Shown: positions 13,684-28,539 of the stretch, in pieces
Numbering within the stretch: the first letter of the stretch is position 1
Layout: each line of letters opens with the position of its first letter
From: Ochromonas danica
Taxonomy: Eukaryota > Sar > Chrysophyceae > Chromulinales > Chromulinaceae
Direction: 5' to 3'
Length of the DNA stretch: 28,945 nt
Assembly (NCBI GenBank): GCA_015146655.1
Contig: VKHL01000240.1
Coordinates: 1-28,945 of the forward strand
Notes under the pieces: model-generated
What the model saw: the letters and a program-made list of their open reading frames with translations, nothing else
Database searches by the model: none
Told to the model about the DNA's origin: nothing
Position numbers and translations under genes: made by a program

Positions 13684-14664
13684 TTAGTAGTCTCCTCCTC
13701 CTCCTCCACCACCACCGAACATGTCCATGCCACCATCAAGGGCATCAACCTCCTCTTCCTTAGGCTTCTCAGGAGCAGCGGCGGCAGCAGGAGCGGCACC
13801 AGCAGCACCACCAGCGGCAGGAGCAGCAGCAACAGCGAAGGCAGCAGGGTTCTTGAGGAAGGCCTTGAAAGGCTCAGCCTTGTCGAAGGTGTAGTTCTCC
13901 AAGTTGACAGTGACAGCCACCAGAGAGCGGAAGGCATTGCCAACAGAGTGAGGGAGAGAAGCCTGAGTAGGATAGCCGATCTGGAGAGAGATAGCAGCAA
14001 TCTTAGAGAGAGCAGCAGAGAACTTCTCGACGAGGTAAGACTCATCAATATCAAGCACATCCACAGAGAAGATAGAGCCATGATCGAAGACACAGTCAAT
14101 CACCAAACCATAAGAGAAAGGCTTAATGTTCAACTTAGACAACAAGGAAGCCTCAGAAGAGCCAACCTTGTCACCCTTCTTGATGAGGTTGACAGGGTTG
14201 GTGATCTCAATTTGACCCTTCACGATCTTAGTAGGGATCTGTAAGACCTGGAAGAAAGAGGTCTGTCCAGGATCACATCCAGTAGGACCAGCAGGCACGA
14301 CGACATCGACAGGAGAGACGGCACCGACACGAGCAGGAGCAGGCACACGATTGGCTAAAATCATGTCACGCACCTTAGGCAGGTCACTGTTGGTGAAGAC
14401 AAAGCCAACGTTGCCAGCCATCTTCTCTTGGATGTGAGTATAGAAGTGACCAGGATTCTGATCCAAGAACTCCTTCATGACCTTTCTCATGAGAGTATTC
14501 TTTCCCATGAGGATCTCAGCAGTACCACGCATCATCTTTCTAGTAGCGTTTAACTGTTGAGAACCAACGTTATCAACAGAGACAACGAAGACCTTGCCAT
14601 AGGTCTCAAGCATGGTAGTCATGCGGGCGAAGTATTCCTTCTTCTTTTCCTTGCTCAGAGGCAT
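13684..14664 (-). CDS. RPLP0: 60S acidic ribosomal protein P0 (uL10)
   Basis: This is a 326-aa intron-free gene. I choose the ATG at 14664 (MPLSKEKKKEYFARM), although the frame is open to a TTG at 14733. The uL10 core is clear: KVFVVSVDNVGSQQLNATRK, RGTAEILMGKNTLMRKV, MAGNVGFVFTN, then the P0-specific insertion with GPTGCDPGQTSFFQVL, IPTKIVKGQIEI, and the Ala-rich hinge. P0 forms the base of the ribosomal stalk that recruits elongation factors. The C-terminus is unusual against animals and plants: in place of the SDDDMGFGLFD-type tail it ends DALDGGMDMFGG, a Gly run and DY. Codon use is strongly biased to C/G-ending codons, as expected for a highly expressed gene. It is divergent from the first secreted-protein gene. 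Confidence 0.97.
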   Translation of the reverse strand: MPLSKEKKKEYFARMTTMLETYGKVFVVSVDNVGSQQLNATRKMMRGTAEILMGKNTLMRKVMKEFLDQNPGHFYTHIQEKMAGNVGFVFTNSDLPKVRDMILANRVPAPARVGAVSPVDVVVPAGPTGCDPGQTSFFQVLQIPTKIVKGQIEITNPVNLIKKGDKVGSSEASLLSKLNIKPFSYGLVIDCVFDHGSIFSVDVLDIDESYLVEKFSAALSKIAAISLQIGYPTQASLPHSVGNAFRSLVAVTVNLENYTFDKAEPFKAFLKNPAAFAVAAAPAAGGAAGAAPAAAAAPEKPKEEEVDALDGGMDMFGGGGGGGGDY

Positions 14665-15106
14665 CTTGATTGATTTTTGTTTTTGTAGTAGTGGACCTGT
14701 AGCAGCAGCAGCAATAGGAGTAGGAAAAAACAAAGATGAGAATTTTTTCAGAATAGGGCTAGTAAATAGAGGTCATACCTAAATCGAAGTGGGAGCTTGA
14801 GCTTCTATTATCTCAAACTAGCGTTTAACCACAGGGATGGTAGCTAAGGCTATGAATGGCTTGCTTGGTTTGTGTGGAAGGCGAAGAACCACCCCAAGCA
14901 ACAACAACAGTGGAAGAGTGCATGGCTGCATGGCTGTCACAGTGTGTCACAGTGTGTCTGTGCACGACTTGGGAAGAATAGAGAGGAACCCTGGGAAGAA
15001 TGAACCACCATCAACAGATTGAAAAACGCGCTTCTATACAATCGTTAACTTAACAAGAACCATACACCAACAACAATGATGTCAGATTTCTTGTTGGTTG
15101 TTCAGG
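14665..15106. promoter_or_regulatory. Shared upstream region of P0 and secreted-protein copy 1
   Basis: Head-to-head spacer of ~440 bp. An AAAAACGCGCTT word at 15022-15033 lies ~77 bp before the secreted-protein ATG. The duplicated block begins near 15054-15062 inside this region. No clear TATA box is seen. Confidence 0.45.
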
Positions 15107-16111
15107 ATGAAATTTCTTGTATTTCTTTTATTAATTTGGTATAAACATGGTGTTTTATCATCGACTAAACCATTAGATTTGATTAAAATCCGTGGACATG
15201 CAAGAGTACATAAATTACCCATCTCATTAACAAAATCTTGGTCTATATGGACTTGGGAGGGGGAATCCCTATTTTCAGTTCCTATTGATTCCCATGAAAC
15301 TGAAGATTGGGTGTATCCAACCTCCTATGACTCTCTCTACTTGCCTGCTGACCTTCCATCTCTCTCCTATCAGCCAGCACTGGGTATTGCTATTGCCAAT
15401 GGCTTGCCAAGATATCTCATGCCTTCCATCATCCTCACAGCTCAGACTACTAAAGGTAGTAAGAGGATATGGAGAAATCGAGGGATGAATTCTCTTCCAC
15501 GTGCTCATGTGTGGATTGATGTCTTTTCTGAGAATGCACCCATGTTGACATCTCTTCAGTACTATCTCTTAGGAACTTCTCCCCACTGTAGTACAATATC
15601 CGCTGCAGTGGATAAAGAGAGAAAGTGGAGGTCTCTCTTAGTGGACTCCTCTGTCCCTGCCAAGCAGTCTGCTGTCATTGAGAGACTGCCTATCCAATCT
15701 TACTTCCAAGCCTTCCAGGCCTTCTTTACAACAGAGAATGCTGCTTCTCTCCATGAAGGCTATCATTTTGTAGACATTCCTCTAATTAACACTCCTCAAC
15801 TCTTCCCTCCGTCAGGAAGTGTCCCAAAGCAGATTGTGGGGATGCTAACAGATATCTCAGAACCACAACGCCTGCTTAGCGAAGAAGAAAATCTGAGAAG
15901 TGACAGTGAAGACTCAGTGAAGGAGAATAGCAGAAGTGGCGACCGACAGGTTACTTCAAGGGGGACGGGACAAGGTCTGGGAGATGAATGGCTGGATGGA
16001 GAGCCTCTGGGTGTGTTGCAGATCGAGACAGTAGAAGCAGCTGCAGGTGGGCAATCACCCTACTTGCCTAAGGTAAAACCACTCTATCTATCCAAAGCAT
16101 TTGATCATTAA
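15107..16111 (+). CDS. Putative secreted protein of unknown family, copy 1
   Basis: I do not recognise this 334-aa protein. The ATG at 15107 starts a typical signal peptide (MKFLVFLLLIWYKHGVLSS). The mature part is mixed alpha/beta in composition with few low-complexity tracts until the acidic/Ser-rich end (LLSEEENLRSDSEDS). Notable stretches: TKSWSIWTWEGESLFSVPID, PALGIAIANGLPRYLMPSIIL, ERLPIQSYFQAFQAFF. The C-terminus is uncertain. A GT-AG intron at 16073-16142 (AAG|GTAAAA, pyrimidine tract, ATTAG) would replace the last 13 residues with IYHDLFASAR. Alternatively an intron at 16073-16231 would add the 62-residue ORF that ends at 16420. A second, protein-identical copy lies at 21097-22101. 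Location outside the cell or in the secretory system is inferred from the leader only. Confidence 0.7.
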   Translation: MKFLVFLLLIWYKHGVLSSTKPLDLIKIRGHARVHKLPISLTKSWSIWTWEGESLFSVPIDSHETEDWVYPTSYDSLYLPADLPSLSYQPALGIAIANGLPRYLMPSIILTAQTTKGSKRIWRNRGMNSLPRAHVWIDVFSENAPMLTSLQYYLLGTSPHCSTISAAVDKERKWRSLLVDSSVPAKQSAVIERLPIQSYFQAFQAFFTTENAASLHEGYHFVDIPLINTPQLFPPSGSVPKQIVGMLTDISEPQRLLSEEENLRSDSEDSVKENSRSGDRQVTSRGTGQGLGDEWLDGEPLGVLQIETVEAAAGGQSPYLPKVKPLYLSKAFDH

Positions 16112-16225
16112 CAATTTTGTGGTTGTTTTTCTATTCCATTAGATTTATCACGACCTATTCGCCTCGGCAAGATAACTAACAACTGTACACACTGTCGATA
16201 ACTGTTCAATTAAATTCTCTCATCA

Positions 16226-16420
16226 ATGCAGCTCAACTTGGCAAAGTGTATTGATCGCTGTGTTATTTGTCATATAATTAGAAACATTCTTAAGATCTTA
16301 GGCTTTGGTATTAGTGAAGTGATTGACGAGGTTTATGAAACGTTAGCAGATATATTCCAGTTTTCGTTTCCAGCAGTTACTGTGGGAAGGAACACATTCA
16401 TTGGTGGTTTCTCTATCTAA
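16226..16420 (+). CDS. Small ORF or 3' exon in the duplicated block, copy 1
   Basis: 64-aa ORF starting ATG-CAG-CTC. The CAATGCAG| before CTC also reads as a splice acceptor in phase 0 with the donor at 16073, so this may be the last exon of the secreted-protein gene rather than a gene of its own. The content is hydrophobic and helical (CVICHIIRNILKILGFGISEVI). It is identical in both copies of the block. Family unknown. Confidence 0.35.
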   Translation: MQLNLAKCIDRCVICHIIRNILKILGFGISEVIDEVYETLADIFQFSFPAVTVGRNTFIGGFSI

Positions 16421-17635
16421 GGTGAAATCAATTGAGTTTGTTAGACTGAGCAACCGCCATCGATGATCAATGGATGCTGTCTTTGTTTTATCTAACGAAT
16501 TTCCTCTTCTATCAACAACACACCTTTTCAAAACCAGAATGAACTTCGAAATGCTTTTAGAGCATGAAAACGCTTGGGAAAGAAGATGTTAGCAAGTTTT
16601 ATAGCTGTTCAGAAGGTTGATGATGCTAGGGTGGGCGAAAAGTTGGAACTAAAAGAGAATGAAGTCAATGAAGAAGCATCGACGCAAAGGCTGCTGCTGA
16701 GTATGATCAACAATCAGAACAACAAGGCTTTTCCTCAACGAAACCCGCACAAGAACATCTATTGGTCATCGAAATGAATGTTTATCAGAATACTGACGAG
16801 GAGGAGAGTCCTTTTTATTCTGTGTCATTGAGAGATGTCTTGGTAGCAGCAGTTCAGACAGTATGAAAGTAAGCGCTACTTTATGACCTCGATGCAGACA
16901 AGTCATTGTAAAATAGTGATGTGAAAAGTCGTGGCCAAGAAGGCGTTGCAGGAAGAACTCTTTCGTTTTGATACGTGTAAGACGGAGTTGCTCAAGATGT
17001 TCAATCTTACTTCAAAGTTACAAACGTCAATCAGCTGATAGATACCTTAGCAAGTGGATTCGCTTGTGGCAAGCTACAGTCTTTATTATTTGGCGATAAG
17101 AAGGCCAAGGGGGAAGGTCTGAAGTGGTACCATCTCGCTCCTTATACTCAGCCATGATCGTGATGAAGTGTTGCACCTGTTGAAGCCAAGAATGAATGCT
17201 ATTGGACGCATTAGTATGGCCGTATCTCATATACCGTACATTATCACAGACCTTACCCCCACAATTATTGGAATGAAGTGCTTCTTAGAAGAATCAATGA
17301 CACAGCATGATGCAGGTAAAAGATAGGTCTATCGATGGCGAAGCTTAAGAAACTGACTTAGCGGTTATTGCAGAATCGAGCATTGAAGCAGGTTTGCGAT
17401 TTATTCTGCAGGCTGAAATATTTGTTGGCTATGAAGGTATTCACGCATTCGTTCTATATACACCAGCTTAATATTACGTTGATGTGCGCACTACTTGCTA
17501 CATGTTAATCTTATCATCTTTTCCCCTCATTTATCAAATGTACAATTCCCAATGAAAACACTTCTCATAGTTAATTGCCATTTGTTATGCCATTCATATT
17601 TAGCTCTGCTTCACAATTGCAGAAGCAGCACACTA

Positions 17636-17830
17636 CTAGGTTGGATCAAAATTTGCAATCTGTAATAAGTTGATGAAACAGTTTTCAATTGGATTTTGGT
17701 CGTAGCTATAAGTGGGGAGATAATAGAAGAACACAGAATAGTTATCACATAGTTGATTCACTCGTATCAGATCAACCATTCCTGCGTTGTCCAGGACACC
17801 CAGCCGATCCAATCCCCAAATCCACTCCAT
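17636..17830 (-). pseudogene. Tc1/IS630-like DDE transposase fragment
   Basis: A 64-codon open stretch contains the second half of a DDE_3-type catalytic domain: VLDNAG (second acidic residue), VNQLCDNYSVFFYYLPTYSYDQNPIENCF (where families read LPPYSPDLNPIENxF), followed by an early stop. The third acidic residue region is kept as IEN. The N-terminal HTH and the first Asp motif are not recognisable upstream on the - strand, so this is a relic. It is too short to assign to a subfamily. Confidence 0.6.
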
Positions 17831-19029
17831 CGCCTAGTTGGATGAAGTTGCCTCGTCAAAGAGATTCAAGCTGAACAAGGCCTTGGTGGCACCTGAAAAA
17901 AGAGCAGATTACTTCTCAAATGGATGGTATTCTTTGCGCTACTGCAGACGCGATCATGGATGATATGAATGAAGCACACCACTTGGGCCTGGGAAAGGAT
18001 TTATCTCAAACGAAAACTAGTTGGGCATCGCTAATAATCCAATACATGCTTTCTAAGATGAGTGCCATGTGTCATGGCTTGAAGAATTTGATTTGGAAGG
18101 TCAAACCTACTCAATTCAAGAATTGAACAAAGAAGATGAAGAAGAAGATGATGATGACCAAGGAGATGGAAGCAATGAGGAAGATGAAAGAGATAATAGT
18201 GGAGGAGAAGGAAAGGAAGAGGTCGTGGTACAACCTTCATCATCTTCTTCTTCTTCACCTCTCTGGCAGCACTTCCCCAACCTCTGGTCACTTAGATCTG
18301 AATGAGAAGTTTGGACTCCAAAAGTCGAGAATTGGAAGTTTTCAATTCTCATTGGAAATTCGCGCATTTACGCAAAGGCAGAAAAACGGGTTTTCCACGC
18401 AAATAGGAAACGCAATTTGCTTCCAGAAATTCGTGCATCAGCATTCCCTATTTGCCACACAAACAAACTTCCAGTGCCTTTATTCCAAAATGAGGGCAAG
18501 AAAAGCAAGGCTGGGGGCTCGAAGAACTATAATAGAGCCTTCCTTCACTACCCCTTCATTTTCTTCCAGCAAGAAAGCTCGACGAGACGAAGAATAAGGG
18601 GAAGGGCCAGAAGAAGGGAGAGCATAAGCAGAAGGAGAAGAGAAGTCAAGCGATGAAGAGTCCATTAAGGGCAACAAACCGAAGAATGTCTGCAACAGTC
18701 CTCATTCTGGCGAAGTTACTGCTATCATGATGAAGATGGCCGAAGTTATGTGCCCTGAGGTCACGTTGAAAACCATGGAGAGCAGCACCGGCAGGGTATG
18801 GTCATGCACAAAAAGGAAATGACGAGGATAAATATGCAGTTGTAGCTTATTTTGTCTGGAAATGCGAACGGCGTGGTGCTACCTGGTATTGGAGCCAGCT
18901 GCAGTAGGGGCAAGCAAGTAGCACTTCCTCGCTGCAGGTGTCCGATGCTTGAATGGGCTTTAGAAGTAGTACGCAATAATGTAACTATAATAATAACAAC
19001 CTGAATGGTCAAATTCTATCATATTATTA

Positions 19030-19305
19030 TTACAATCCAAAGTATTGCACTGTACTGTGCTGCTCATAGTGGGTTGAAAACAGCAATTTGGTTGAGGCAC
19101 AAAGGCACCCACAAAGCGAGACAGACACCCCAAACATCAACGCCAACTCACTAAGAGTCATTTTATACTCAAGATAACACAGGACTAACCCAAGCTTGTC
19201 CACGTTTGTGACGATGGAAGGGCGACCAACCTTGAGAGCAATATCTTCACGGTCCCATAAAAAGCTGCACAAGAGCTTAAATGCTTGCCTGGCGACGCCA
19301 GTCAT
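19030..19305 (-). pseudogene. Harbinger/DDE_4-type transposase N-terminal fragment
   Basis: 91 codons with the typical pattern MTGVARQAFKLL, then GRPSIVTNVDKLGLVLCYLE, then KMTLSELALMFGVSVSLC. This matches the recalled 'TGM....F..L ... GRP ... LGL.L.YL...M.L..L..IFGVS.S' N-terminal helix-turn-helix of Harbinger-like (DDE_4) transposases. The ORF ends before the catalytic domain. A weak continuation (APIPGSTTPFAFPDKI) may lie at 18761-19012 in another frame. No catalytic triad could be seen. Confidence 0.5.
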
Positions 19306-19606
19306 TGTAAGAATGACCTTTCTTCGCCGTCAGTATAAAGCTTTCTCCAAAGAGAAGAAGTAGGTGGCAATATGACCGATCTACTCAGCGTCGACAAGTT
19401 CCTGAGACCGTTTAGTACAATAACTCAGGCAAAAAGAACCGCTCCTTTTCTCACAACGCTGGAGCAAGGACTAGGAATCTCATCTTCAGAAGAAACTCCG
19501 CTCAATGAATCAAAGATTACACTGAAAACCCTCTTATTTGCGAATGCGTAAAAATTCACGCATTCGTGCATTTTGCACGGGGTGTTTTTCGTGATTTTAC
19601 GCAAAA

Positions 19607-20869
19607 ATGCGCGTAAATTTCTCTCTCAATTCGAATTCGACACTCCCTGCTCTACCTGCTGCGCTTTGGAATGGGCATCGATTGAACGAAAGCACATTCG
19701 ATATCCAGGTATCGCTTCGGAGAAAAAAATCTAAGGAAACTAAAAAAGGAATTATGAATCGTATAGTATTCTATTTTGGCGATGGCCAGCTCGACCGTGT
19801 CGTGGTGGAAGGCGATGTGGATTCCTCAAAGATAGAGATCAACCCCACAATTGCTCCCATCCCGAGTTCTCCTTCTCCAATCCCCTCCGCTACTCCAATC
19901 CCTCAAGAAGGAATTATGAACAGGACCGTTTTCTGTGTTGGCAATGGCCAGCAGCACCGTGTCGTGGTGGAAGGCGATGTGGATTCCTCAAAGATAGAGA
20001 ACAACCCCACAATTGCTCCCATCCCGAGTTCTCCTTCTCCAATCCCCTCATTGAATTCGTTAGACGACCAAAGTACTGGAGAGCAAGAAACTGAAAACTG
20101 TAGGAATACCGACCTGAGGCATTTCAGCGTCTTGAGTATTGGAAAGATGGGCTCGGGTAAGACCTCTACTGTCCATTGTCTCGTGGGACATAATGACCAA
20201 GGTCAAGCAGGTTGGCTGCTTGGAAATGACTTCCGTTGCAAAAGTTTCAAACACAGCAATGGTACTACGATCACTATTAATGATGCCCAAGGCTTTCTAG
20301 GCGATCTCAAATATGACTGGCCCCTCTTGAGACAGACCATCTCAAAGCTCTCCTCTGAACAACCCATTGATATGGTCTTCCTCTGCCTCTCCTTCGATCG
20401 CTTCAGCCAAGACGATGAGAATACCCTCCACCTCGTCAGAAAGTTCACTACACCAGCCTTCCATCGCCTCATCCACGTGGTCATCACTCATGCTCCAAAT
20501 GGAGTGGTGAGTGAAGAGGCAAAGGCTATGATAGCCGAAAAGCTATCGTTCTTGGGCAATAGTCCAGAGGAGGTGTTGTCAGAGAAGGTAACATTTGTGG
20601 ACTTAATCAGTCCTTCAAGCATTCCAAGCGATCTCGTGGAGATACAAGAAGCGATCAATAGCAAGTGGAATAAAGCTCAAGAACGTCTCGTCCAACAGCT
20701 GTTGGCAACGAATCCAGAGGAGAGTATCAAGCCCAAAGAAATAATGGCAAAGAGTTACACGCACCAGCTCTATCTGGTCTACAAGCGGGATTTGGATGTT
20801 TTCATTGTTTTTATGTTATTAGTTAAACTTCTCACAATGAATTTTGAAATTCAAGTAAAAAGCGCTTGA
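19607..20869 (+). CDS. AIG1/IMAP-like P-loop GTPase with duplicated N-terminal segment
   Basis: 420-aa ORF. The GTPase domain spans residues ~165-350: HFSVLSIGKMGSGKTST (Walker A/G1), TITINDAQGF (G3, with DAQG in place of the usual DTPG), DMVFLCLSFDRFSQDDENTL, then HVVITHAPNGVV (G4 position, where THAP replaces T[KH].D). The changes at G3 and G4 could weaken guanine specificity. The N-terminal part has two tandem copies of a 54-residue unit (GIMNR.VF...GNGQ...RVVVEGDVDSSKIE.NPTIAPIPSS), encoded by a 162-bp repeat. The protein ends in a hydrophobic stretch (VFIVFMLLVKLL) that might be a membrane anchor. The first ATG at 19607 lies inside a repeat-like inverted motif; the Met at 19754 is a plausible alternative start. 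Role unknown; relatives act in membrane or defence-related processes. Confidence 0.65.
   Translation: MRVNFSLNSNSTLPALPAALWNGHRLNESTFDIQVSLRRKKSKETKKGIMNRIVFYFGDGQLDRVVVEGDVDSSKIEINPTIAPIPSSPSPIPSATPIPQEGIMNRTVFCVGNGQQHRVVVEGDVDSSKIENNPTIAPIPSSPSPIPSLNSLDDQSTGEQETENCRNTDLRHFSVLSIGKMGSGKTSTVHCLVGHNDQGQAGWLLGNDFRCKSFKHSNGTTITINDAQGFLGDLKYDWPLLRQTISKLSSEQPIDMVFLCLSFDRFSQDDENTLHLVRKFTTPAFHRLIHVVITHAPNGVVSEEAKAMIAEKLSFLGNSPEEVLSEKVTFVDLISPSSIPSDLVEIQEAINSKWNKAQERLVQQLLATNPEESIKPKEIMAKSYTHQLYLVYKRDLDVFIVFMLLVKLLTMNFEIQVKSA
19748..20055 (+). repeat. 162-bp tandem duplication inside the GTPase ORF
   Basis: Unit 1 is 19748-19909 and unit 2 starts at 19910. The central ~90 bp (from GTGTCGTGG to CCAATCCCCTC) are nearly identical, while the first ~45 bp differ at several sites. 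The period is a multiple of three, so the frame is kept. Confidence 0.93.
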
Positions 20870-20933
20870 TAAAATTCATGAGATATGGGAAAGCAGCCAC
20901 GAGAAATGAATGGATGAGAAAGAAGAAGTGGAT

Positions 20934-20991
20934 AAGCTATGGTTCTTGGGTAATAGTCCAGATGAGGTGTTGTCAGAGAAGGTAACATTTG
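20934..20991 (+). pseudogene. Remnant of a second GTPase copy
   Basis: This stretch matches 20540-20600 of the GTPase ORF (from AAGCTAT through CTTGGG.AATAGTCCAGA.GAGG to GGTAACATTTGT) with only about three differences, then diverges. It sits ~60 bp upstream of duplication copy 2. No other part of the GTPase is recognisable nearby. Confidence 0.85.
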
Positions 20992-21096
20992 TAAGTTCCC
21001 CAAGGAAACAAGAGACGCGATAAAGAACTAGTCGAGTGCAATTCAAGAACAATACACCAACAACAATGATGTCAGATTTCTTGTTGGTTGTTCAGG

Positions 21097-22101
21097 ATGA
21101 AATTTCTTGTATTTCTTTTATTAATTTGGTATAAACATGGTGTTTTATCATCGACTAAACCATTAGATTTGATTAAAATCCGTGGACATGCAAGAGTACA
21201 TAAATTACCCATCTCATTAACAAAATCTTGGTCTATATGGACTTGGGAGGGGGAATCCCTATTTTCAGTTCCTATTGATTCCCATGAAACTGAAGATTGG
21301 GTGTATCCAACCTCCTATGACTCTCTCTACTTGCCTGCTGACCTTCCATCTCTCTCCTATCAGCCAGCACTGGGTATTGCTATTGCCAATGGCTTGCCAA
21401 GATATCTCATGCCTTCCATCATCCTCACAGCTCAGACTACTAAAGGTAGTAAGAGGATATGGAGAAATCGAGGGATGAATTCTCTTCCACGTGCTCATGT
21501 GTGGATTGATGTCTTTTCTGAGAATGCACCCATGTTGACATCTCTTCAGTACTATCTCTTAGGAACTTCTCCCCACTGTAGTACAATATCCGCTGCAGTG
21601 GATAAAGAGAGAAAGTGGAGGTCTCTCTTAGTGGACTCCTCTGTCCCTGCCAAGCAGTCTGCTGTCATTGAGAGACTGCCTATCCAATCTTACTTCCAAG
21701 CCTTCCAGGCCTTCTTTACAACAGAGAATGCTGCTTCTCTCCATGAAGGCTATCATTTTGTAGACATTCCTCTAATTAACACTCCTCAACTCTTCCCTCC
21801 GTCAGGAAGTGTCCCAAAGCAGATTGTGGGGATGCTAACAGATATCTCAGAACCACAACGCCTGCTTAGCGAAGAAGAAAATCTGAGAAGTGACAGTGAA
21901 GACTCAGTGAAGGAGAATAGCAGAAGTGGCGACCGACAGGTTACTTCAAGGGGGACGGGACAAGGTCTGGGAGATGAATGGCTGGATGGAGAGCCTCTGG
22001 GTGTGTTGCAGATCGAGACAGTAGAAGCAGCTGCAGGTGGGCAATCACCCTACTTGCCTAAGGTAAAACCACTCTATCTATCCAAAGCATTTGATCATTA
22101 A
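21097..22101 (+). CDS. Putative secreted protein of unknown family, copy 2
   Basis: The protein sequence is identical over all 334 residues to the copy at 15107-16111, including the signal peptide and the uncertain C-terminus (possible intron at 22063-22132 or 22063-22221). The 5' flank differs beyond ~45 bp before the ATG, so the two copies may be regulated differently. However an ACGCG word lies ~80 bp before the ATG in both (21015-21019 here, 15026-15030 in copy 1). The complete lack of silent differences means a very recent duplication, gene conversion, or an assembly duplicate. Confidence 0.7.
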   Translation: MKFLVFLLLIWYKHGVLSSTKPLDLIKIRGHARVHKLPISLTKSWSIWTWEGESLFSVPIDSHETEDWVYPTSYDSLYLPADLPSLSYQPALGIAIANGLPRYLMPSIILTAQTTKGSKRIWRNRGMNSLPRAHVWIDVFSENAPMLTSLQYYLLGTSPHCSTISAAVDKERKWRSLLVDSSVPAKQSAVIERLPIQSYFQAFQAFFTTENAASLHEGYHFVDIPLINTPQLFPPSGSVPKQIVGMLTDISEPQRLLSEEENLRSDSEDSVKENSRSGDRQVTSRGTGQGLGDEWLDGEPLGVLQIETVEAAAGGQSPYLPKVKPLYLSKAFDH

Positions 22102-22215
22102 CAATTTTGTGGTTGTTTTTCTATTCCATTAGATTTATCACGACCTATTCGCCTCGGCAAGATAACTAACAACTGTACACACTGTCGATAACTGTTCAAT
22201 TAAATTCTCTCATCA

Positions 22216-22410
22216 ATGCAGCTCAACTTGGCAAAGTGTATTGATCGCTGTGTTATTTGTCATATAATTAGAAACATTCTTAAGATCTTAGGCTTTGGTA
22301 TTAGTGAAGTGATTGACGAGGTTTATGAAACGTTAGCAGATATATTCCAGTTTTCGTTTCCAGCAGTTACTGTGGGAAGGAACACATTCATTGGTGGTTT
22401 CTCTATCTAA
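22216..22410 (+). CDS. Small ORF or 3' exon in the duplicated block, copy 2
   Basis: Identical to the 64-aa ORF at 16226-16420. As there, a phase-0 splice acceptor ends at 22221, so it may be a terminal exon of the secreted-protein gene. Confidence 0.35.
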   Translation: MQLNLAKCIDRCVICHIIRNILKILGFGISEVIDEVYETLADIFQFSFPAVTVGRNTFIGGFSI

Positions 22411-22505
22411 GGTGAAATCAATTGAGTTTGTTAGACTGAGCAACCGCCATCAATGATCAATGGATGCTGTCTTTGTTTCATCTAACGAATTTCCTCTTCT
22501 ATCAA

Positions 22506-23265
22506 ATGTTCTTGTTTAGTTCAAATTGGTGACAGACAGAAACTCGCTACATTGGAAGAAAACAACAAGACATAATCATTGCCAAAAAGTTGGTGTTTGC
22601 GTTACCACTGGATCAAAAAGTGTTGACTGAAGTGGGGTTCGAACCCACGCCTCCGTAGAGATTCGAACTTGAGTCGAACGCCTTGGACCGCTCGGCCATT
22701 CAGCCACACCAACCTTTGGTGTTGTTGCGCGTGTTGAACAAGCCAATATTAAACAAGAATAACTACCTTGGTGGTCAGTGACTTCCTTTCTCAATGAAGC
22801 GTAGCTGAATGAGATGCAGTCTATCTAGGTTGTTACCCATGCATTGTATATGTTATACTTAACAAGAGAGATTAATGAGATTGTGAAATGAAATCCTTGA
22901 GCCATTAACAATAGCAATCTCAAAGGTATGATCAATGGCAGTAATAAGATGTCTATCCAGTCCTTGAGATGATCTGAGGCAAGTGATCAATGGGTGGGAT
23001 TGTTAGTGAATTTAATCAATACATGATTCCTTGGTAGAAATGGTATGCTTGCTGTCTTTTGGCTGACGGCTTTAGGTCCACCGTATACCATCCCAGTCCT
23101 AGCTTTAGAGCTACTTAGCGCCAGGTTATACTACAGATGCAAATAGTCATGGGATGTGCTGTGATCAATTTGCCAAGGTGTGCAAGATTGTAAAAACAAC
23201 AACAATCATAACAAAGTCATCACTGAGACTCTATGACTAGTATAGTGATGACCTTATACTATTTG
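22506..23265. other. Region around tRNA-Leu, otherwise non-coding
   Basis: Apart from the tRNA at 22624-22705 I see no gene. The ORF overlapping the tRNA is a shadow. The stretch 22800-23260 is AT-rich and contains no recognised element. Confidence 0.5.
22624..22705 (-). tRNA. tRNA-Leu (anticodon CAA)
   Basis: 82 nt, class II tRNA. The acceptor stem GGCTGAA pairs with TTCAGTC (one G-U), discriminator A. The A box is TGGCCGAGCGG and the B box GGTTCGAACCC. The anticodon stem TTCGA/TCGAA closes the loop CTCAAGT, giving anticodon CAA at 22669-22671, which reads UUG. A long variable arm (TCTCTACGGAGGC) is present and no intron is seen. A run of five T on the transcribed sense strand (22615-22619 on +) follows within a few bases and fits a Pol III terminator. 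CCA is not encoded, as in eukaryotic nuclear genes. Confidence 0.95.
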
Positions 23266-23559
23266 GATCACAGACTTCGGTCTGTCCGCTGTGTTGCCAG
23301 GGTGGTTGTCAGGCAGTGACAAGCCCAGCAAGCAGTTTCGCGGGTTGAAGGAGATGTGGGGAACGACGGAATACTTCGCTCCTGAGGTGTATGAGAGAGC
23401 GTATGGTTTCCAGGCAGATGTGTGGTCATTGGGATGTATCTTGTATGAGATGTTGACTGGTGAAGTGGCCTTTCGTAGTCGTGAGAACACTATGTTATGG
23501 ATCGATCGCATGTTATTGAAGAGTCTTGGTGTTCGTAAGCCAAAGCGATGCTTCGAGGA
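23266..23559 (+). pseudogene. Inverted 294-bp copy of a kinase activation-segment region
   Basis: This is a copy, in opposite orientation, of 24465-24758 of the kinase gene. It encodes from ITDFGLS through the APE motif and WSLGCILYEMLTG to RKPKRCFE, then runs into unrelated sequence and a stop. I saw only about two base differences (one silent in the DFG region, one changing Val to Leu after LPGW). There is no N-lobe and no ATG of its own, so it is a fragment and not a working kinase. The ends are abrupt with no obvious flanking target duplication. Confidence 0.93.
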
Positions 23560-24052
23560 TTACAGTGGTTGACTGGTTAGTGGTGAGTCTGTTATGGTCT
23601 GGTAGTAGACTATTCCGGTGTTGTAGTGCTAGTCAAAGGTTGTGATGCTCACCATAAAACAAAACAATAGAATAGAATAGAATGCACGGTGTTATTCATT
23701 ATAGTTTACTTTACTTGTGTAAACGATACATACAAGATTTGCGAAGACAAATTATTATCTCACCACCTCGAGTAAGATATCTCGCTACAGTAGCTCTACA
23801 GTATATACAACAACTACAACTACCCGCTAGGCTAGGCTATGCTCTGCTATCCTATCCTATCCCTCCTATACTACACACTAATAAATAAACTTGCTGACTG
23901 TGGCATAAATGAAACCTGCTGCCACAATATACACCTTACGATGATGATGCAATGCACAAACACACACACAGATGCACACACTGCTGTACAATATAGACAA
24001 TAATCTGTCTCAACGTGGCTGTCCAATCTACTGTATCTCTCTTGTTGGCCTC
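23560..24052. other. 3' flank of kinase gene, no gene seen
   Basis: It contains short AATAG and TATCC repeats (23667-23680; 23848-23866), a CACACA run near 23957 and the presumed 3' UTR of the kinase gene. The short + ORF at 23682-23888 has no recognisable features. Confidence 0.5.
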
Positions 24053-25577
24053 CTACTCACTGCCAAGATCATCCACCATCACCATCGCCTCGCGCTTTGC
24101 ATTGCGTCTGACCATATGCTCTGATCTCTTCACATACGAGGCTTGCACTTCATCAGGGAGAGCCTCGTCATAGATGGTAGGCTTCCTCACCATCATCATC
24201 TTCATTCTCCTGCTCTCCTCTTCAGGCACCACCACCTTCTTCTTCATCTCCTCCTCCTCACTCTTCTCAGAGTCACAAGACATTGTGCGACACATCAATG
24301 CCACCTCTTTCTCGTCTCCTAATACCATCTTACCCTCCTCAGCCAACTTCAGCCAAGGATGAGACAGACATTCTTCGATGTCCAAGCGCTTGACAGGATT
24401 ACGCTTCAACATGCCCTTGATCAAAGAGCGAGCCCCACGAGAAAGCTTACGCCAGCCTGGAAGCTCCTCGAAGCATCGCTTTGGCTTACGAACACCAAGA
24501 CTCTTCAATAACATGCGATCGATCCATAACATAGTGTTCTCACGACTACGAAAGGCCACTTCACCAGTCAACATCTCATACAAGATACATCCCAATGACC
24601 ACACATCTGCCTGGAAACCATACGCTCTCTCATACACCTCAGGAGCGAAGTATTCCGTCGTTCCCCACATCTCCTTCAACCCGCGAAACTGCTTGCTGGG
24701 CTTGTCACTGCCTGACACCCACCCTGGCAACACAGCGGACAGACCGAAGTCCGTGATCTTCACCGTCAGATCATCCACGGACTGGATAGGCATCTTACTG
24801 CCATTGCTGCTGCTGTTGCTATTACTTCGACTGCGGGATGAAGAGGAAGGAGAACGAGCACATAACATGTTCTCCAGCTTCAGATCGCGATGAACGATGC
24901 CGTGCTCATGCAGATGCTGCACACCCAATAACATCTGCTTGAATAACTTCGCGATCGTGCGCTCACTATACACAGGAAGCTCACCCAGAGCTGACACCAA
25001 GTCTCCACCTTCCACCAACTCCATCACCATCCAAGCCTTGTGCTCGGTGTGGAAGGCGTGGTGCATGCGAACAATATTGACATGGTTGGTTCGGCGGTAG
25101 GCTTCGATCTCCGTCTTGATGGTTCGAGCATCATTAATCACGCCATCAGCTCGCACATACTAATAGTAGTATCATAGACATACAGCACATGGTAAGAGGA
25201 TGGAAAGTGAGGGTTGGAAGCACGAAGAGGTTGCTCACCTTGCAAGCATAGAGCTTTCCACTTTGCTTATGATGAGCAGCTACGACATTGGCTGACGACC
25301 CATAGCCCAGCAGCTTGTCTGGGGCATACGTGGCATAGAAGGCGTCGTCGATGTCTGCTTGAGAGAAGTTGGAGCTGATATCTGTCCTGAAGGATTCTCT
25401 CACTTCATGATGATCTTTCATCTATTGGGACACCATACATTCAATGGATGAGATCTCGTTGTTCAAGTCAAGTTGAAGTGTTGAGAGAGAGTGGCAGTTA
25501 CCACCTACCTGTTGTTGGATCTCATGTTGTCTAGGATCTTGACAATGAACCTTGTTCGTTGAGATAGGTTGTCCCAT
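24053..25577 (-). CDS. Ser/Thr protein kinase (CAMK-like), probable N-myristoylated form, three exons
   Basis: Exons are 25577-25509, 25421-25239 and 25159-24053 (~452 aa), with introns of 87 and 79 nt and phase-0 junctions. The inferred first exon starts MGQPIS, which fits the N-myristoylation rule (Gly2, Ser6). If it is not used, the ATG at 25421 (MKDHHEVRESF) is the start. Kinase motifs in order: LGYGSSANV (Gly loop), LYACK (ATP Lys), TEIEAYRR (helix-C Glu), MELVEGGDL, HRDLKLENML, DFGLS, TEYFAPEVY, DVWSLGCILYEMLTG and the closing RLDIEECLSHPWL. All catalytic residues are present. A ~30-residue Ser/Asn/Arg insert separates the HRD and DFG motifs. The charged tail (SEKSEEEEMKKK) may be regulatory. 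No EF hands are seen. Membrane-linked signalling is inferred from the putative lipid site; substrate unknown. Confidence 0.85.
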
Positions 25578-25919
25578 TCTATTGACGAATGTATGTATAA
25601 CTAGTTTGTTAATAATAGTAACTGACAATGGAGTTCAATTCTGGAAGAAGAAGAAGGAATGGAAGAAGATGGCGTGGTCAAAGGTTGGGAAAGGTCAGCA
25701 GCCTGTGGCAAACAGAGAGGTGATGAGCTGGGACTGGGAGGAGGTGCGCTGCACTACTTGTACAGCACAGCGGCACAGCAAGAGGAACAGCCGGACGAGG
25801 GGCGATGTGGTGCTGGCTGGGGGGTGGCATCTTTCCATCTTCACCCGAAACCTGCAAGTGCTGTAGAGGAAACTCTGGAAAGTGCAGTTATAAGTCCACT
25901 ATTCTGGTGGCGGAAGAAC
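25578..25919. other. Upstream region of kinase gene
   Basis: Spacer between the kinase start and the 3' end of the P-loop gene, both on -. GAAGAA- and GGAGG-rich on the + strand. The + strand ORFs at 25552-25866 and 25659-25997 have composition typical of chance ORFs. Confidence 0.45.
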
Positions 25920-27624: not shown

Positions 27625-28539
27625 TTATTGACATTTTTTTTCTTTAATGCCGAAAAGGTCGGAAGCGCTGGTGAGCATGGGCTCCTCGAGCACTTCGAGG
27701 TAAATATCGCTGACCATATTGCCTATTATGAGCACCATTTGCCCCACACCCGAAGCACTGAAGTATCCCCACACATTGATCTTAGTTTGGTGCTTGACGG
27801 AAGCAGTCACGCACGACAGGCTGTGCCTTTCTTTTTTTCTTCGCCAGACCCATTTTCGGCTTTTATGACGAATCTCGAAAGAAGACTCATCAGGCCACAA
27901 AACTTCTCGCCATTGAGCAGTAGTCCAGTGGGCATGAACCTTAGCCCATTCCAATCTTTTTTTTTGGTTGGCCTCACTAATGAAAGGCTTTCTGATGGTT
28001 TAACGGGATTCGAATTCTCCACTCTCGCTAATGCGTCTACGAATCAGCCTCTCACTCAGCCCAGCGAAGGATGGGAGGTCTGCGATTTGCTTCGATGTGA
28101 TGAATCGGTTCTGCCGCACATAATTCAATATGGCCCGGTGTGTCCGTTCATCAGTCTTTCGGGGCCTACCTCGACCAGAAGCAGAGTTCAGAGTTTTGTC
28201 CTTTTCCCACTTCTGATAAAATCTCGCGATTGTCGAGTGGTGTCGACGCAGCAACTGACCAATTTCGCAAAAGGACATCCCTTCTCCATATTTCTGAAGG
28301 ATAGTAGCCTTTTCGATCAATGACAGGTGTGAAACCCCTCGATTCGCGGCCGGAACAGGCTCATCCACTATATCTTCACACAGCACCATCAATTCTGCTT
28401 CTTTGACAGGATCATCCACTACAATAGTGTCCGTGGAAGATGTCTCACCGTCACTAGCAGAAGAGGAAGCAAGAAAATCCATCATTTGGCCGTGAACTTC
28501 TTCTTCATTGGCCGAGCAATTTTTTACGCACGCTTCCAT
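27625..28539 (-). pseudogene. Tc1-like transposase, interrupted and 3'-truncated
   Basis: From the ATG at 28539: an acidic N-terminal extension (~70 aa), a helix-turn-helix (LSLIEKATILQKYGEGMSFC, then IGQLLRRHHSTIARFYQKW), the GRGRPRKTDERTHRAI linker and a second HTH (SKQIADLPSFAGLSERLIRRR). An in-frame TAA (28000-28002) interrupts the frame, after which the same frame continues with KPFISEANQKKRLEWAKVH, HWTTAQWREVLWPDES (first catalytic Asp), YVWRR-like VWRRKKERH and VWGYFSASGVG. The chain ends just before the expected QQDNAPxH motif, so the second and third acidic residues are absent. The product cannot be an active transposase. The length is ~304 codons against ~340 for complete Tc1 transposases. 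Confidence 0.88.

What the first reader, a model, noticed from the sequence alone, without database searches (positions are those of the whole stretch)
15062..22505. Two near-identical 1.45-kb direct copies of an unknown secreted-protein gene, 5,990 bp apart
The blocks 15062-16515 and 21052-22505 differ at only two positions that I could see, both outside the ORFs, although the DNA between them is full of old, decayed elements. Zero silent changes in 334 codons means very recent duplication, ongoing gene conversion, or an assembly duplication. If real, two identical copies of a signal-peptide protein with different 5' flanks suggest dosage or expression selection.
Basis: partly seen in the sequence, partly recalled or inferred. 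Interest (0 to 1): 0.75.

Follow-up and report, generated by a model that had tools for sequence, protein, structure and literature searches.

The report
Duplicated algal gene; identity likely assembly-made
An alga's genome draft carries two almost identical copies of an uncharacterised gene 6 kb apart; the two copies are probably real, but their perfect sameness is most likely a by-product of how the draft was assembled, so it says little about age or selection.

Summary
15054-16515 and 21044-22505 (offset 5,990; 1,462 nt) differ at three sites (15061, 16462, 16489), no indel; these are the only two copies found in the 31.2 Mb assembly. Each copy has its own left and right flank, so two loci are likely. 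The inference from "zero silent changes" is weak: all three differences lie within 54 nt of a block end and the 1,400-nt core has none (P about 0.00025 if placed at random). Unrelated near-identical pairs of this assembly look alike. In 29 pairs, 2 mismatch events (one site, seen in two pairs) have 77 or more exact nt on both sides; 30.65 are expected. E. coli rrn operons keep 76 of 209.5 expected. Best reading: an ordinary local duplication in TE-rich DNA whose interior was written twice from one merged path of a de Bruijn-type assembly, perhaps hiding about 1% divergence. Real gene conversion or recent duplication are the main rivals. The gene has a hydrophobic N-terminus and no family in the libraries searched. 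Nothing supports dosage selection. Low interest; mainly a caution for this assembly.

The parts
15054..16515 (+). Copy 1 of the duplicated block (1,462 nt)
21044..22505 (+). Copy 2 of the duplicated block; differs only at the equivalents of 15061, 16462, 16489
15107..16111 (+). ORF of copy 1, 334 aa from ATG, hydrophobic N-terminus (MKFLVFLLLIW...), no match in Pfam, NCBIfam or PDB sequences; open frame 343 codons against at most 219 in 1,000 shuffles of the block
21097..22101 (+). Identical ORF of copy 2
16214..16420 (+). Open frame in copy 1 that could hold a second exon (GT at 16073, AG before 16232; the protein would then be about 384 aa); inferred, no transcript evidence
16515..18353 (+). 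Mobile element A, its left end cut off at the right junction of copy 1 (the copies on C175 twice, C106 and C149 carry a 41-nt terminal inverted repeat shortly before the equivalent of 16515); right terminal repeat 18313-18353
18355..19594 (.). Mobile element B (96-98% copies on C81 and C129)
19607..20869 (+). AIG1/GIMAP-type GTPase ORF (PF04548, 27.1 bits against a cut-off of 27), relatives on C55, C231, C50, C232
20931..20992 (+). 62-nt fragment of the AIG1 gene left of copy 2 (94% to 20537-20598)
22622..22706 (-). tRNA-Leu(caa), right of copy 2

Best explanation
Two real loci formed by an ordinary local duplication of one gene into transposon-rich DNA. Shown: distinct left and right flanks at both copies, and copy 1's right end joined to a mobile element that lacks its own left end. 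The near-perfect identity of the 1,400-nt core is most likely produced by the assembly. In a de Bruijn-type assembler, differences between two repeat copies that lie far from unique flanks form bubbles that are collapsed, and the single merged path is written into both places; differences chained to the unique flanks by exact stretches shorter than about k survive. True divergence would be of the order of 1%, roughly 15-20 hidden differences. Shown: the mismatch pattern across pairs. Inferred: the assembler, k near 77, and the hidden divergence.
For: The 3 differences lie 8, 54 and 27 nt from a block end; a core of 1,400 nt or more has probability about 0.00025 under random placement. Similar pattern in C209 (825 nt, mismatches at 800, 803, 822), C240/C209 (2,079 nt, at 17, 50 and from 2006 on) and C175 (1,889 nt, at 5, 75, 121). 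Mismatch events with 77 or more exact nt on both sides: 0 against 24.5 expected in 17 pairs from 158 kb (0 of 2,000 simulations); 2 against 30.65 in 29 pairs from 200 kb, all loci held (0 of 1,000 simulations as low); 0 against 19.1 in 8 pairs picked by hand. Control: E. coli K-12 rrn operons keep 76 against 209.5 expected, with some in 30 of 33 alignments. The terminal 77 nt of contigs C209 and C175 recur elsewhere for exactly 77 nt. A 10-N run in C55 suggests scaffolding. Collapse with 1-1.4% divergence predicts 2.4-4.0 surviving differences. SPAdes collapses bulges and repeats the graph with rising k (passages of PMC6736328).
Against: No reads or assembly record were seen. One site breaks the rule: a C172 mismatch with 97 and 82 exact nt beside it, seen in two pairs. 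Only two of ten readable contig ends recur for exactly 77 nt among the sequence held, and the C175 end also lies in a 3,719-nt perfect inverted repeat. Of six ends searched genome-wide, three matched exactly over 90, 92 and 111 nt, one over 151 nt at 99%, one at 92%, one had no near-exact match; the window's own ends show no such overlap. A cluster of four mismatches inside the element B pair C240/C81 (exact runs of 428 and 567 around it) and a 37-column patch in C175 were not collapsed. In one search the count is zero already from k = 60. The pairs come from few contigs and are not all independent. Diverged kinase paralogs share a 780-nt exact stretch, which may be real conversion.
Confidence: 0.55

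Rival explanations
1. Real homogenisation: an older duplication whose core is kept identical by ectopic gene conversion, while the last ~50 nt at the ends escape because conversion tracts seldom reach them.
For: Diverged ends with an identical core fit conversion. The inverted kinase copy on C209 is identical to the window over 780 nt (24334-25113) although the rest of that alignment is strongly diverged. Equal-spaced, equal-scoring LHC copies on C224.
Against: E. coli rrn operons, whose homogenisation by conversion is recalled knowledge, keep 76 isolated mismatches of 209.5 expected; here 2 of 30.65, with pairs on different contigs included.
Confidence: 0.22
2. A genuinely recent duplication (too young for silent changes) made by error-prone replicative repair, which put point changes near the junctions.
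For: Non-homologous junctions, one of them in a truncated element; identical core. That such repair can put point mutations near junctions is recalled; only a search listing was seen.
Against: The same accident must be assumed for the other near-identical pairs of the sample.
Confidence: 0.18
3. False duplication: only one locus exists and the second was created by mis-joining.
For: The contig is short (28,945 nt) and repeat-rich, and a repeat of this layout is a loop in an assembly graph.
Against: Distinct left and right flanks at both copies and three differences near the ends.
Confidence: 0.05

Closest known systems
Collapsed (over-merged) near-identical repeats in short-read de Bruijn assemblies
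   Same: Interior identical, differences near unique flanks, some contigs ending inside repeats
   Different: Assembler and k not documented here; contig-end overlaps are not constant; some clustered and one isolated difference survive
Gene-converted paralog pairs
   Same: Identical core, more diverged ends
   Different: Isolated mismatches far rarer than in the rrn control, and so across unrelated pairs
Ordinary dispersed segmental gene duplication next to transposons
   Same: Breakpoints in mobile-element and gene debris
   Different: Nothing distinctive seen

Membership tests
Collapsed repeat in a de Bruijn assembly | No mismatch isolated by 77 or more exact nt on both sides | tested here: inconclusive
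   0 against 24.5 expected in 17 pairs; 2 (one site) against 30.65 in 29 pairs: strong depletion, one exception
Collapsed repeat in a de Bruijn assembly | Contig ends overlap repeats by a constant k | tested here: inconclusive
   Exactly 77 at 2 of 10 readable ends, 12 examined, two read N; 90, 92, 111 exact and 151 at 99% at four of six ends searched genome-wide; none at the window's ends
Collapsed repeat in a de Bruijn assembly | Doubled read depth and mixed bases in the core | not testable with these tools
   no reads available
Gene-converted paralogs | Mosaic of identical tracts with residual isolated differences, as in rrn operons | tested here: inconclusive
   Isolated differences at 2 of 30.65 expected against 76 of 209.5 in the control; none in the block itself
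Very recent duplication | Differences spread evenly along the copy | tested here: not met
   P about 0.00025 for the block
Transposable element | Terminal inverted repeats, target-site duplication, further copies | tested here: not met
   Only two copies in the assembly. An inverted 14-mer lies at the two outer ends (15047-15060 and 22508-22521), but that motif is near background in the genome (9 against 6 in the reversed control); no target-site duplication seen by eye
Known protein family | Match to a family model or solved structure | tested here: not met
   none in Pfam, NCBIfam, PDB sequences or, for close relatives, viral contigs; PHROGs and PADLOC not scanned

The most novel reading that the evidence does not exclude
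The identity is real: this alga homogenises dispersed duplicate genes by unusually thorough conversion that leaves almost no isolated mismatch over kilobases, stopping only some 50-120 nt from the ends of homology, and this orphan gene pair is one example.
Probability: 0.12. Interest if true: 0.55.

Novelty: already known. Interest (0 to 1): 0.17.

Why it matters
It warns that sequence identity between paralogs in this assembly should not, without reads, be used to date duplications or to argue for conversion or selection. The simple count of isolated mismatches, with rrn operons as a control, can be applied to other assemblies before such claims are made.

Tried and rejected
Transposon reading of the block: the end motif AACTWAACAAGAAC occurs 9 times genome-wide against 6 for the reversed control, so it is no repeat family. 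Viral origin: no close relative in viral contigs (six pattern matches, none confirmed). Organism: a search for SSU rRNA failed three times; 47 matches to the chlorophyll-binding family point to a photosynthetic alga, species not identified; a paper search for the assembly size found nothing. Papers: searches gave listings; passages were seen of PMC6736328, PMC8021871 and PMC12135590 (nothing of use); no paper was read whole.

The sample is 158 kb or 200 kb, nearly all chosen by similarity to the window or its motif, not at random. Searches left out 13 short loci that adds; adding them brought the one exception. Alignments under 200 nt were dropped in all three.

Full report
Observation. The window is a whole contig, C240, of a 31.2 Mb, 337-contig genome. 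The two blocks are real in the sequence: 15054-16515 and 21044-22505, 1,462 nt, three substitutions, no gaps. No further copy was found in the assembly by DNA or by protein. The genome gives 47 matches to the chlorophyll a/b-binding family, so the host is taken to be a photosynthetic alga; the species was not identified.

The gene. The block carries a 334-codon frame from ATG 15107. Its open frame of 343 codons exceeds the longest in 1,000 shuffles of the block, 219. The N-terminus is hydrophobic (mean hydropathy 2.1 over the first 12 residues), which fits a signal peptide, though no predictor was run. No match was found in Pfam, NCBIfam or PDB sequences, and no close relative in viral contigs. 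A GT at 16073 and an AG before 16232 would add a 62-codon second exon that ends within the block; this is inferred. With or without it, all three differences lie outside the coding frame. The block holds only 53 nt upstream of the ATG, so each copy would probably rely on its own flank for a promoter; copy 1 faces away from the gene for ribosomal protein P0, whose own start lies near 14664 by my reading of the frame.

Surroundings. Right of copy 1 lies mobile element A. Its relatives on C175 (twice), C106 and C149 have a 41-nt terminal inverted repeat shortly before the base equal to 16515; in the window that end is missing and the block is joined there instead, and the missing end was not found in 14734-15053 (local score 9; shuffled mean 7.9, maximum 15). 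Element B follows, then an AIG1-type gene and a 62-nt fragment of it left of copy 2. Right of copy 2 are a tRNA-Leu gene and a kinase gene, whose region 23603-25681 is 99.5% identical to C209. The junctions look non-homologous, as in ordinary dispersed duplication.

Pattern of differences. The three differences lie 8 nt from the left end and 54 and 27 nt from the right end; the core of 1,400 nt has none. With three differences placed at random this has probability about 0.00025. The two copies therefore do not look uniformly young. I compared near-identical pairs in the stretches held, which were nearly all chosen by similarity to the window. The C209 inverted pair (825 nt), the C240/C209 pair (2,079 nt) and a C175 pair (1,889 nt) again have mismatches only near an end. 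Two C175 alignments have none at all, one of them cut by the stretch held and the other by the contig end. In 17 pairs of at least 94% identity and 200 nt from 158 kb, no mismatch event has 77 exact nt on both sides; 24.5 are expected under random placement, and none of 2,000 simulations gave zero. With 13 shorter loci added (200 kb, 29 pairs) there are 2 such events against 30.65, with none of 1,000 simulations as low. Both are one site, a mismatch of the C172 copy of element B with 97 and 82 exact nt beside it. In 8 pairs picked by hand the figures are 0 and 19.1. Scanning k over 24 pairs of at least 90% in the 158 kb, the count is 6 against 37.4 at k = 50 and zero from k = 60.

Control. The seven rrn operons of E. 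coli K-12 MG1655 are homogenised by conversion (recalled) and come from a finished genome. One stretch (L057) was cut inside its 16S gene. In their 33 alignments of 1,000 nt or more, 76 isolated events remain against 209.5 expected, with at least one in 30 of 33. Real homogenised copies thus also fall below the random expectation, to 36%, against about 7% here. The control is bacterial RNA genes, so it is a rough yardstick only.

Assembly reading. The terminal 77 nt of contig C209 recur for exactly 77 nt in three places, and those of C175 in one. Overlaps of exactly k are what a de Bruijn assembler leaves at a branching point, and 77 is a usual largest k of SPAdes (recalled). Against this, only 10 of the 12 ends examined were readable, the comparison was with held sequence only, and the C175 end also lies in a 3,719-nt perfect inverted repeat. 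Of six ends searched genome-wide, three matched exactly over 90, 92 and 111 nt, one over 151 nt at 99%, one at 92%, and one had no near-exact match; the window's own ends show no such overlap. A run of 10 N in C55 suggests scaffolding. Passages of the rnaSPAdes paper say that SPAdes collapses bulges and repeats the graph with rising k (PMC6736328); passages of a review say that metaSPAdes collapses strain differences with similar procedures (PMC8021871). A simple model in which only differences chained to an end by exact stretches under 77 nt survive gives 2.4 surviving differences at 1% and 4.0 at 1.4% true divergence, with an apparent core of 1,400 nt or more in 50% and 35% of runs. The observed three fit. 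By this model about 15-20 differences may be hidden; that number is an inference.

What does not fit. The C172 site above survives although it should have been merged. A cluster of four mismatches in the element B pair C240/C81 and a 37-column patch in C175 were not collapsed. The inverted kinase copy on C209 is identical to the window over 780 nt, 24334-25113, while the rest of that alignment to 25425 is strongly diverged, which may be real conversion. Two diverged paralogs, that copy and the one at the C209 end, switch to identity within about 3 nt of each other, and the contig ends 77 nt later, which also fits a graph vertex, though the point is near the end of the kinase domain as well (by eye). 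I therefore hold the assembly reading at 0.55, with real conversion and recency together at 0.40.

Verdict. The duplication is likely real and ordinary; its perfect identity is probably made or exaggerated by the assembly; nothing supports selection for dosage.

Noticed in passing
23266-23559 and 24465-24758: Inverted partial duplicate of a kinase exon, 294 nt, two mismatches both near one end; the kinase region 23603-25681 is 99.5% identical to C209:24513-26585.
   Followed up: partly
19740-20049: Two 148-nt copies (90%), 162 nt apart start to start, inside the N-terminal part of the AIG1-type gene.
   Followed up: no
15047-15060 (+) and 22508-22521 (-): Inverted 14-mer AACTWAACAAGAAC at the two outer ends of the pair of copies; genome-wide 9 sites against 6 in the reversed control.
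   Followed up: yes
27628-28539: Remains of a transposase: helix-turn-helix matches (PF13936 and others) at 28003-28539; the Tc1-like assignment of the rest is by eye.
   Followed up: no
G000 contig C224, 8673-16382: Four LHC matches with equal scores at exactly 2,407-nt spacing; the same caution about identity applies.
   Followed up: no
L036 and L037 (contig C175): Inverted copies of 3,719 nt without a single difference, reaching the contig end.
   Followed up: partly
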